Part shown: positions 7,248-52,841 of the stretch, piece by piece
Position numbering within the stretch: the first letter of the stretch is position 1
How the letters are laid out: every line of letters begins with the position of its first letter
Assembly: GCA_022844405.1 (NCBI GenBank)
Contig: JALHLV010000001.1
Location: 124,001 to 188,000, forward strand
Source of the DNA: Sphingomonadales bacterium
Lineage (GTDB): Bacteria; Pseudomonadota; Alphaproteobacteria; SMXS01
Direction of reading: 5' to 3'
Length of the DNA: 64,000 nucleotides
Notes under the pieces: model-generated
Seen by the model: the letters and a program-made list of their open reading frames with translations, nothing else
The model's database searches: none
Told to the model about the DNA's origin: nothing
Program-made: the position numbers and the translations under genes

Positions 7248-7286
7248 GCCGTGCTCCCGCTCGGGCGGGTTGGTATAAAGGCAGGC

Positions 7287-8048
7287 ATGACAGACCCTCA
7301 AAAAGTTTCCGCCTGCCTGATCATCATCGGCAATGAAATCCTGTCCGGCCGGACCCAGGACGCCAATCTGGCGTATCTGGCCAAGTGGCTGAACGACCAG
7401 TGCGGCATCCAGCTCACCGAGACCCGCGTGATCCCCGACATCGAGGACACCATCGTCGGCACGGTGAACGAGGTGCGCCCCAGGTTCGATTACGTGTTCA
7501 CCACCGGCGGCATCGGGCCGACCCATGACGACATCACCGCCGAATCGATCGCCAAGGCGTTCGGCGTGCCGTGGGAACTGCATCCCGAGGCGCACGAGAT
7601 CCTGAAGGAATATTATGGGCCCGAGGGCCTGACCTCGGCGCGTGCACGCATGGCGTGTACCCCGCGCGGCGCCAGGCTGGTCGACAACCCGATTTCCAAG
7701 GCGCCCGGCTTCCAGATGGAGAACGTCTTCGTGCTCGCGGGCATCCCGCTGATCATGCAGGCGATGCTCGAAAGCCTGAAGCACCGGCTCACCGGTGGCC
7801 TGCCCGTGCGGTCGCGCTCGGTACTCCTGCACCTCGCGGAAAGCCTTATAGCCGGCGGGCTCAGGGACATGCAGACTCGCAACCCGACGGCGGATATCGG
7901 TTCGTATCCGTTCTACCGGCAGGGCAAAGGCGGCACCAGCATCGTCATCCGCTCCACCGACGAGGCGCTCAACGCCAGGTTGGCCCAGGAAGTGTTTGAA
8001 ATGGCTGATTCATTGGGAGGGACTCCCCAATTTGAGGAATCCGCCTAA
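7287..8048 (+). CDS. Competence/damage-inducible protein CinA-like, molybdopterin-binding domain (COG1058)
   Basis: A 253-residue protein made of the MoaB/MogA-type domain found at the N-terminus of CinA. The start region IIIGNEILSGRTQDANLAYL and the motif VFTTGGIGPTHDDITAESIAKAF are the hallmark sequences, and GVPWELHPEAHEIL follows. The C-terminal amidase domain of full CinA (nicotinamide-nucleotide amidase) is absent, so this is the short stand-alone form. Start at ATG 7287 is selected over 7251, which lies inside the terminator region. Stand-alone members have been linked to ADP-ribose pyrophosphatase-type activity in NAD recycling, but this copy cannot be assigned a substrate from sequence. 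Confidence 0.88.
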   Translation: MTDPQKVSACLIIIGNEILSGRTQDANLAYLAKWLNDQCGIQLTETRVIPDIEDTIVGTVNEVRPRFDYVFTTGGIGPTHDDITAESIAKAFGVPWELHPEAHEILKEYYGPEGLTSARARMACTPRGARLVDNPISKAPGFQMENVFVLAGIPLIMQAMLESLKHRLTGGLPVRSRSVLLHLAESLIAGGLRDMQTRNPTADIGSYPFYRQGKGGTSIVIRSTDEALNARLAQEVFEMADSLGGTPQFEESA

Positions 8049-8084
8049 TTTCGAACACAATTTGAAGTTGCATAAAATTTGAAA
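8029..8084. repeat. Four copies of an AATTTGAA-like element and a possible promoter
   Basis: AATTTGAGG (8029), AATTTCGAA (8047), AATTTGAAG (8059) and AATTTGAAA (8076) occur in 56 bases across the end of the CinA-like gene and the intergenic region. They stand out as AT-rich in GC-rich surroundings. A possible -35 (TTGCAT, 8068-8073) and -10 (TATACA, 8089-8094) follow, though with a short 15-base spacer. This may be a regulator binding region for a downstream transcript. Confidence 0.4.
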
Positions 8085-8094
8085 CGACTATACA

Positions 8095-8270
8095 GCTAGT
8101 TCCTGGAGCCACCCACGGCCAACACCATCGGGGTTCCAAAGGTGCCGGGTTCTCCTTATGGGGGCAGGACCAGGCGACCGCCCGAGTTTCAGACCCGCTT
8201 CGGGCTTGGGCCGATGTGAACAGCATCGGACTGGGGCAGGGGATGAAATCAATCTGAAAAGCGCCAGCCG
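8095..8270 (+). ncRNA. Possible small RNA or structured leader (unassigned)
   Basis: The 370-base gap between the CinA-like gene and the small lipoprotein gene has no convincing frame. Immediately after the AT-rich promoter-like segment, the DNA has RNA-like structure: CCGATG-TGAACAG-CATCGG (about 8192-8211) is a perfect 6-base hairpin, and CCCGCTTCGGG just before it can form another. I compared it mentally with tmRNA, SRP RNA, RNase P RNA and 6S RNA and could not assign it. Orientation is inferred only from the promoter-like sequence. Confidence 0.25.
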
Positions 8271-8286
8271 GGACATCCGGCGGCGG

Positions 8287-8389
8287 GTTGGTCGACAAAC
8301 CGGTGGCGCCTGTCCGCACTGAGCGGGCATGGCGGGGGTCAACATTTCCCGCGAGACGCGACCGAGACGACCAACACCGGACAGGCGCC
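8287..8389. repeat. Two interleaved inverted repeats upstream of the lipoprotein gene
   Basis: GTTGGTCG (8287-8294) pairs with CGACCAAC (8368-8375), and GGCGCCTGTCCG (8305-8316) pairs with CGGACAGGCGCC (8378-8389). The pairs interleave (5'a-5'b-3'a-3'b), so they are mutually exclusive as simple hairpins or could form a pseudoknot. They lie 30 bases before the ATG at 8419. Confidence 0.5.
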
Positions 8390-8418
8390 GCCTGCCCGTA
8401 ACAGACGAGGACAACATC

Positions 8419-8784
8419 ATGAAGACGCTCATTCCCGCCCTCGCGGCGGTCACCCTCCTTGCGGCCTGCGCCGAAACCCCGGCCGCGACCCACGTCGCCG
8501 AAATGCAGGCGCTGACCACCAAGGTCACCGGGCTGCAGTGCCCGTCGGCCCAGCCGGTCATCGTGTACGGCAACCGCGAAGGCGCCGCCTGGACTCCCGC
8601 CGGGCCGGTCAAGGGCGGCACCATCGTGATGCCGGCCAAGTTCGACCCGACCACCGCCGAAGGCCGCAAGGCGCAGACCGGTCCGCAGGCGCACTGGCGC
8701 ATGGCCGAGGAAGTGGCCCACACCTGCGGCGCCGACGAGACCCAGGCCCGCGCGGTGAAGTGCCAGTGGTGGATCTGCGGCTGA
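8419..8784 (+). CDS. Small predicted lipoprotein, unknown function
   Basis: A 121-residue protein starting at ATG 8419, with GAGG nine bases upstream. The signal peptide MKTLIPALAAVTLLAAC ends in a lipobox with Cys17, predicting lipid anchoring. The mature part has three further cysteines (CPSA, HTCGAD and CQWWICG region) and a C-terminal WWICG motif. I recognise no characterised family. The long structured region upstream suggests regulated expression. No coding neighbour on either side appears functionally linked. Confidence 0.6.
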   Translation: MKTLIPALAAVTLLAACAETPAATHVAEMQALTTKVTGLQCPSAQPVIVYGNREGAAWTPAGPVKGGTIVMPAKFDPTTAEGRKAQTGPQAHWRMAEEVAHTCGADETQARAVKCQWWICG

Positions 8785-8869
8785 TCGCCGGCACCAGCGA
8801 CACCAGGACGGCCAAGGGACCGGAGTCCGCTCCGGTCCCGCTGGTCCCGCGAGACCTCCCTCGATAGAG

Positions 8870-8992
8870 GTCCGGGCCTGCCGTGGTCTGCCCTGAACAT
8901 GCCGCGTGGTACGCGCCGGATGGAGAGCCGACCCGCTCAACCTCTCCGACCGCGCGCGGCAACGTTCAGGACAGACCACGGCAGACCCGGAC
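8870..8992. repeat. Large near-perfect inverted repeat upstream of tRNA-Leu
   Basis: A 29-base arm beginning GTCCGGGCCTGCCGTGG (8870-8898) matches the reverse complement of 8964-8992 at 27 of 29 positions. Both differences are C-to-T changes relative to the matching strand. Inner bases GCCGCG (about 8901) and CGCGGC (about 8955) can extend the stem. The element fills most of the gap between the small lipoprotein gene and the tRNA. No gene is seen inside; overlapping frames here look like chance frames. Confidence 0.7.
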
Positions 8993-9061
8993 CCCGGCAG
9001 ATCCGCGCCGGTTCGGGCTTCGCTTTACGCCACCGCGCCGCTCGCATAGGTTTGCGGCCAC

Positions 9062-9148
9062 GCGAGCGTGGTGGAACTGGCAGACACAGCAGACTTAAAA
9101 TTTGCCGCCCGCAAGGGCTTGCGGGTTCGACTCCCGCCGCTCGCACCA
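9062..9148 (+). tRNA. tRNA-Leu, anticodon UAA
   Basis: An 87-base class II tRNA. The acceptor stem GCGAGCG (9062-9068) pairs with CGCTCGC (9138-9144), followed by A and an encoded CCA (9146-9148). The anticodon loop CTTAAAA gives UAA, which reads UUA and UUG leucine codons. A long variable arm and the T-loop GGTTCGACTCC are present. No integrase or repeat of its 3' end is seen nearby, so there is no sign of use as an attachment site. Confidence 0.95.
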
Positions 9149-9251
9149 ACTGCCCGGCGGCCCTCTCATGGCTGCCCGGCGAAACTGGTCCTACCGGCGT
9201 CACGATCCAGTCCTACACTCGAGAAGCTGAGCGACTGGTCTGGAGGCGTCC

Positions 9252-50135: not shown

Positions 50136-52841
<2,706 letters not shown>

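What the first reader, a model, noticed from the sequence alone, without database searches (positions are those of the whole stretch)
8029..8418. Long structured intergenic region with AATTTGAA repeats and possible small RNA
Four AATTTGAA-like copies, a promoter-like sequence, two hairpins and interleaved inverted repeats fill 390 bases with no credible gene. The arrangement suggests a transcribed regulatory RNA or a long leader for the small lipoprotein. I could not assign it to a known RNA family.
Basis: partly seen in the sequence, partly recalled or inferred. Interest (0 to 1): 0.5.

Follow-up and report, generated by a model that had tools for sequence, protein, structure and literature searches.

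The report
Structured RNA leader before small lipoprotein
Between two genes of an uncultured alphaproteobacterium lies a roughly 320-base stretch that is probably copied into RNA, folds into many conserved hairpins and forms the front end of the message for a small lipoprotein of unknown function; it looks like a narrowly distributed control element of no catalogued RNA family.

Summary
Two exact AATTTGAA copies (8059-8066, 8076-8083) form a conserved upstream element; the copy at 8028 lies inside the cinA-like gene and the one at 8250 is degenerate. The block 8095-8418 has no reading frame shared by its relatives and no Rfam match. It lies directly upstream of the lipoprotein gene in all 7 genus genomes held; it was not found in 3 genomes of sister genera. 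Its consensus fold is far stronger than column-shuffled alignments on the + strand (z -7.9; -1.5 to -2.1 for + strand coding controls), and 15 of 85 modelled pairs show changes on both sides. Base identity, however, is no higher than at silent sites or in the downstream spacer, so fold rather than sequence seems to be kept. No terminator-like site separates it from the lipoprotein's Shine-Dalgarno sequence, so a long structured 5' leader is likelier than a free small RNA. One segment (8287-8294) has two conserved partners, 5' (8116-8123) and 3' (8368-8375), which would allow a two-state switch, but calculated ribosome-site accessibility is similar in both states. Transcription, ligand and effect are untested. 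New member of a known kind: candidate cis-regulatory leader RNA.

The parts
7284..8048 (+). cinA-like gene (MoCF_biosynth + FLAD1_M domains), upstream neighbour
8059..8083 (+). AATTTGAA-N9-AATTTGAA element: promoter or operator (inferred)
   Evidence: within 2 mismatches at this locus in 7 of 7 genus genomes; 22-26 of 26 bases kept
8089..8094 (+). TATACA, possible -10 (weak: only the inner TA is kept in 7 of 7)
   Evidence: alignment; not called by the sigma-70 scan
8095..8418 (+). Structured leader RNA (start site inferred)
8105..8137 (+). Helix H1, 5' hairpin (competes with P1)
8141..8179 (+). Helix H2; 6 of 15 pairs with both-side changes
   Evidence: helices 2 and 3
8181..8210 (+). Helix H3; no pair with both-side changes; holds the GGGCTTGG motif kept in 7 of 7
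8211..8229 (+). Helix H4; 2 of 7 pairs with both-side changes
8262..8285 (+). Helix H6; 2 of 9 pairs with both-side changes
   Evidence: helices 7 and 8
8116..8123 (+). CGGCCAAC, 5' partner of 8287-8294 (P1, alternative state)
   Evidence: identical in 6 of 7; P1 counts
8287..8294 (+). GTTGGTCG, segment with two possible partners
   Evidence: first 7 bases identical in 7 of 7
8368..8375 (+). CGACCAAC, 3' partner of 8287-8294 (helix H7, calculated ground state)
8301..8364 (+). Helix H7b, continuing H7 inwards
8311..8329 (+). Helix H8 (inner 6 pairs formed in 7 of 7)
   Evidence: helices 11 and 12
8332..8352 (+). Helix H9
   Evidence: helix 13
8378..8398 (+). Helix H10, last hairpin before the Shine-Dalgarno; 3 of 9 pairs with both-side changes
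   Evidence: helix 14
8407..8412 (+). GAGGAC, Shine-Dalgarno-like, kept in 7 of 7
8419..8784 (+). Small lipoprotein gene (121 aa, function unknown)
   Evidence: no Pfam or NCBIfam match

Best explanation
The block is a roughly 320-nt structured 5' leader of the lipoprotein mRNA. Transcription starts just after the AATTTGAA-N9-AATTTGAA element (inferred), the RNA folds into about ten helices (fold supported by comparison of relatives; folding order inferred), and the fold controls how much lipoprotein is made, in cis, by affecting transcript stability, premature termination (Rho-dependent if at all, since no intrinsic terminator is seen) or ribosome loading (all inferred). The segment 8287-8310 can pair either with the 5' end (P1) or with the 3' half (H7/H7b), so the leader may be bistable; H7 is the calculated ground state in all 7 species. 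Which signal, if any, shifts the balance is unknown.
For: Same block, strand and position before the lipoprotein gene in 7 of 7 genus genomes. Sister genus G007 has neither; there about 50 nt separate the cinA stop from tRNA-Leu, so leader and gene go together. Consensus fold z -7.9 on the + strand versus -4.7 on the - strand and -1.5 to -2.1 for three + strand coding controls. 15 of 85 pairs with changes on both sides against 8.3 +/- 1.9 in shuffles, 0 of 500 reaching it, and 2 to 6 in slid versions. No reading frame shared by all 7. No terminator-like site. Shine-Dalgarno and ATG follow H10 in 7 of 7. Upstream element conserved and reused before another gene.
Against: No transcription data. 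Identity of the leader to the six relatives (0.84, 0.82, 0.77, 0.77, 0.60, 0.53) is about that of four-fold synonymous sites in cinA (0.77, 0.77, 0.75, 0.75, 0.59, 0.64), lower than that of four-fold sites in the lipoprotein gene for 5 of 6, and no better than the downstream spacer's aligned positions: little sequence-level constraint. Only 7 sequences, one genus, about five lineages. The pair counts rest on an alignment fitted to a structure drawn from the window sequence; one of their five measures, further pair types, is not striking (39 of 500 shuffles as high). Shine-Dalgarno accessibility is similar in both states. The - strand also folds better than shuffles, as does the lipoprotein's - strand (z -4.1).
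Confidence: 0.6

Rival explanations
1. The block is a separate small RNA that acts in trans, with the lipoprotein gene transcribed from its own start or by read-through.
For: Own upstream element; multi-helix fold; conserved GGGCTTGG and GTTGGTC segments could be target-binding sites (inference).
Against: No terminator-like site in 7900-9250; always directly before the lipoprotein's Shine-Dalgarno in 7 of 7; one copy in the own genome.
Confidence: 0.12
2. A bistable regulatory leader (riboswitch-like): P1 (8105-8123 with 8287-8310) and H7/H7b (8287-8308 with 8357-8375) exclude each other, and a signal that favours one sets expression. A special case of the best explanation.
For: 8287-8294 has a 5' and a 3' partner that can each pair in 6 of 7; P1 keeps 88.1% of cells paired, with 2 of 17 pairs changed on both sides (12 of 500 shuffles as high); in 5 of 7 species the P1 ensemble lies within 8 kcal/mol of H7.
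Against: Both P1 changes rest on G006 alone, the most distant and worst-aligned row; G006 has lost the 5' copy as a sequence; no expression platform: no terminator and similar Shine-Dalgarno accessibility; the other crossing helix 8302-8316/8378-8392 is not supported.
Confidence: 0.2
3. The hairpins matter as DNA or not at all: a GC-rich spacer that drifts near neutrally, with only the AATTTGAA element under selection.
For: Leader identity is about that of silent sites; single-sequence fold only z -2.9 and the - strand -2.5; the - strand alignment also scores -4.7.
Against: Fold kept well beyond column shuffles and coding controls, and more so on the + strand; both-side changes; length nearly constant (323-336 nt in 7 genomes as cut).
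Confidence: 0.2
4. The block is (or was) protein-coding: an N-terminal extension of the lipoprotein or a small upstream frame.
For: An in-frame ATG at 8329 exists in the window.
Against: No frame is shared by all 7 relatives; the lipoprotein alignment starts at its own signal sequence, with a lipobox-like cysteine kept in all 8 rows.
Confidence: 0.02

Closest known systems
Candidate riboswitches and leader RNAs from GC-rich intergenic-region searches ('weak riboswitch candidate', 'medium-ranking candidate' in PMC11109978; passages seen)
   Same: Long GC-rich intergenic region, complex fold with covariation, close to the Shine-Dalgarno and start codon of one gene, few representatives in one genus (compare the yjbM motif, three representatives in Geobacter, as described there)
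   Different: The downstream gene is a lipoprotein of unknown function, so no ligand is suggested; no expression platform is evident; no Rfam 15 match
6S RNA (RF00013)
   Same: Structured bacterial RNA that this genome also has
   Different: This genome's 6S RNA lies on another contig, over the family cut-off; no match here
Large ornate bacterial RNAs (OLE, GOLLD, ROOL; seen as titles and starts of abstracts in a listing)
   Same: Long, multi-helix, function open
   Different: About half the length given for OLE (about 600 nt in those abstracts), weak sequence conservation, no Rfam match

Membership tests
Any Rfam 15 family | Match at the curated gathering score | tested here: not met
   None in the leader, in the window or in 7 loci; the four matches at E up to 10 in 7800-8700 are far below their gathering scores
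Cis-regulatory 5' leader (general kind) | Structured RNA fixed upstream of the same gene and strand | tested here: met
   7 of 7 genus genomes
Cis-regulatory 5' leader (general kind) | Structure maintained by compensatory changes | tested here: met
   with controls; only 7 sequences, pair counts on a structure-fitted alignment
Cis-regulatory 5' leader (general kind) | Transcribed together with the gene | not testable with these tools
   no RNA data held
Riboswitch | Expression platform (terminator or Shine-Dalgarno sequestration) that toggles with the aptamer | tested here: not met
   no terminator-like site; Shine-Dalgarno accessibility similar in both states, differences up to 0.13
Riboswitch | Binds a ligand | not testable with these tools
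   needs binding or probing experiments
6S RNA | Match to RF00013 | tested here: not met
   the genome's match is elsewhere, C32:33633-33790
Leader peptide / upstream reading frame | Conserved short reading frame | tested here: not met
   no frame of 10 or more codons shared by 7 of 7

The most novel reading that the evidence does not exclude
A new, genus-restricted class of bistable leader RNA: a 5' domain (8105-8310) closed by P1 acts as a sensor, and loss of P1 lets the same strand close a second domain (8287-8375) next to the start of a lipoprotein message, so that an envelope lipoprotein is controlled by an RNA switch without an intrinsic terminator or a hidden ribosome site.
Probability: 0.12. 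Interest if true: 0.65.

Novelty: new member of a known kind. Interest (0 to 1): 0.38.

Why it matters
If transcribed as predicted, it adds an uncatalogued structured leader RNA in an uncultured alphaproteobacterial lineage, tied to an orphan lipoprotein and to an upstream DNA element that also sits before an Mrr-like gene. That gives testable entry points: one RNA, one gene, one shared element. The narrow distribution limits its wider weight.

Tried and rejected
Known RNA: Rfam at gathering score for the window and 7 loci, and at E up to 10 for 7800-8700: nothing credible. 6S: found elsewhere. Plasmid collection: no match. Second copy in the own genome: none. Coding: rejected. The crossing repeat 8302-8316/8378-8392 as a conserved helix: 84.6% of cells paired, but no pair with both-side changes and 202 of 500 shuffles as high; its arms are better explained by local hairpins H8 and H10.

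Wider family: model R2 against 289 class genomes gave 4 full-length hits, all in the genus, plus one 49-nt partial hit (G139, E 5.9e-4, 23.2 bits) that I judge chance without having followed it up; that search scored at most 5 candidates a genome with strict filters, so absence there is weak evidence. In G007, G008 and G009, with 136-150 candidates scored, no hit reached E 0.001 (best 0.27 in G007).

Lipoprotein function: no Pfam or NCBIfam match; an AlphaFold2 model from 6 sequences (mean pLDDT 76.1, pTM 0.69) has no PDB match at E 0.001 or better. Literature: four answered searches; I read passages of PMC11109978 only, whose held main text does not contain 'lipoprotein' or 'cinA'; the other papers I saw as listings. 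I do not claim that the element is absent from print beyond those searches.

Mended on the way: the first protein alignment used the wrong strand for five rows, redone. A first comparison of the two folds chose wrong partners for H7, redone. RNAalifold on the sequence-only alignment preferred P1; partition functions of the single sequences favour H7 (probability 0.82 or more in 7 of 7), although the window's own minimum-energy fold shows neither P1 nor H7. Model R1 was built but not used.

Full report
What is there. The window is 66.5% G+C; the label 'Alphaproteobacteria bacterium' on a relative's contig and the class-level relatives are my basis for calling it alphaproteobacterial. A cinA-like gene (MoCF_biosynth plus FLAD1_M domains) ends with TAA at 8046-8048. 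A small lipoprotein gene starts at 8419 and a tRNA-Leu follows at 9062-9148. The region between the two genes is the finding. Rfam finds nothing in it at gathering score, nothing credible at E up to 10, and only the tRNA in seven loci that include six relatives.

Repeats. AATTTGAA occurs exactly at 8059 and 8076 and once elsewhere in the window (24408), against 0.23 expected. The copy at 8028 is in cinA codons, and two relatives read CAGTTCGA there. The two-copy element is found within 2 mismatches at this locus in 7 of 7 genus genomes, with 22 to 26 of 26 bases shared with the window. A near copy (GATTCGAATTAGCATAAAATTTGAA type) lies about 70 nt before the start codon of a 319-aa protein in 5 of 5 genomes in which that gene was found, out of 10 searched; here the distance from element to start codon is 335 nt. 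The own-genome protein matches Mrr_cat (E 9.7e-9); the one relative also tested gave no match. I read the element as a promoter or operator; the sigma-70 scan does not call it, so its nature is inferred.

Conservation. The block and the lipoprotein occur in 7 of 7 genomes of the genus; the lipoprotein was found in 0 of 3 genomes of two sister genera, and the leader model reached no E of 0.001 in them. In G007 about 50 nt separate the cinA stop from tRNA-Leu. Three of the seven carry an extra stretch of nearly 300 nt before the element. Identity of the leader to the window, gaps left out, is 0.84, 0.82, 0.77, 0.77, 0.60 and 0.53 for G005, G003, G001, G004, G002 and G006; four-fold synonymous sites in cinA give 0.77, 0.77, 0.75, 0.75, 0.59 and 0.64, in the lipoprotein 0.82, 0.96, 0.85, 0.84, 0.68 and 0.81; the downstream spacer is similar to the leader, with many gaps. 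So the leader as a whole is not slower than silent sites. This result goes against strong sequence constraint.

Structure. What seems to be kept is the fold. On the sequence-only alignment A4 (first 12 ragged columns and everything from the Shine-Dalgarno on removed), consensus folding of the + strand gives z -7.9 against 100 column shuffles, 0 of 100 as low; the - strand gives -4.7; without G006 the values are -5.8 and -2.7; four divergent rows alone give -5.3 on the + strand. The same procedure with 60 shuffles on 330-base coding stretches gives -2.1 and -4.1 (lipoprotein, + and -), -1.5 and -1.8 (cinA 3' end, + and -) and -1.7 (cinA middle, +). These shuffles do not preserve dinucleotides. 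On the model-fitted alignment A5, 87.2% of cells pair and 15 of 85 pairs have changes on both sides (8.3 +/- 1.9 shuffled, 0 of 500; slid structures 2 to 6); the number of further pair types is less striking (51 against 47.6, 39 of 500). The alignment leans to the structure, and the structure was drawn from the window sequence, so these counts are optimistic. Best supported are H2 (6 of 15 pairs), H10 (3 of 9) and H4 (2 of 7).

Two partners. GTTGGTC (8287-8293) is identical in 7 of 7. Its 3' partner (CGACCAAC, 8368-8375) can pair in 6 of 7, and in G006 a CCAAC at a shifted place takes its role. Its 5' partner CGGCCAAC (8116-8123) is identical in 6 of 7. The P1 helix built on the latter keeps 88.1% of cells paired, with two both-side changes, both from one sequence. 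Calculated ensembles prefer H7 over P1 in 7 of 7, by 1.1 to 9.0 kcal/mol in six and 16.0 in G006; the accessibility of the Shine-Dalgarno differs by at most 0.13 between the states. A switch is possible, not shown.

Spread. The covariance model finds the leader full length in the 7 genus genomes and, in 289 class genomes with low sensitivity, nowhere else but one 49-nt partial hit. The record titles of the relatives in genome contigs ('Candidatus Kuenenia', 'Rhizobium sp.', 'Alphaproteobacteria bacterium') disagree with each other and are metagenome-bin labels.

Reading. A structured 5' leader of an orphan lipoprotein mRNA with its own upstream element is the best-supported explanation. Shown here: position, conservation within the genus, fold, absence of a shared reading frame, absence of an Rfam match. 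Inferred: transcription, start site, cis-regulation, mechanism. By the categories quoted in PMC11109978 (passages) it would rank as a medium-ranking or weak riboswitch candidate; that ranking is mine. It is ordinary in kind and new as a member.

Noticed in passing
8869-8993: Very strong hairpin between lipoprotein and tRNA-Leu: 30-nt arms, 93% complementary; fold z -7.35 for 8785-9061; in 6 of 7 genus genomes counting the own, relatives at 81-93% identity over the matched part, one place per genome (the opposite-strand matches are the palindrome itself); 8 of 49 consensus pairs with both-side changes in 5 sequences, the truncated L005 and the unmatched L007 left out. It is better conserved than the leader and deserves its own look.
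   Followed up: partly
L071:1501-1520 and 1590-2546 (own genome C4:68029-69074): The AATTTGAA-type element also precedes an Mrr_cat-like gene in 5 of 5 genomes where the gene was found: a possible two-gene regulon.
   Followed up: partly
L003, L004, L005 (G003, G001, G004): Extra stretch of nearly 300 nt between the cinA stop and the element in three of seven genomes, A+T-richer towards its end.
   Followed up: no
50324-50421: ARAGORN reports a tRNA with a four-base anticodon (cgaa), probably spurious; Rfam does not match it at gathering score.
   Followed up: no
L036:1501-1812: G006 carries a second, divergent copy of the lipoprotein (43% identity) next to a contig end, so a leader there could not be checked.
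   Followed up: partly
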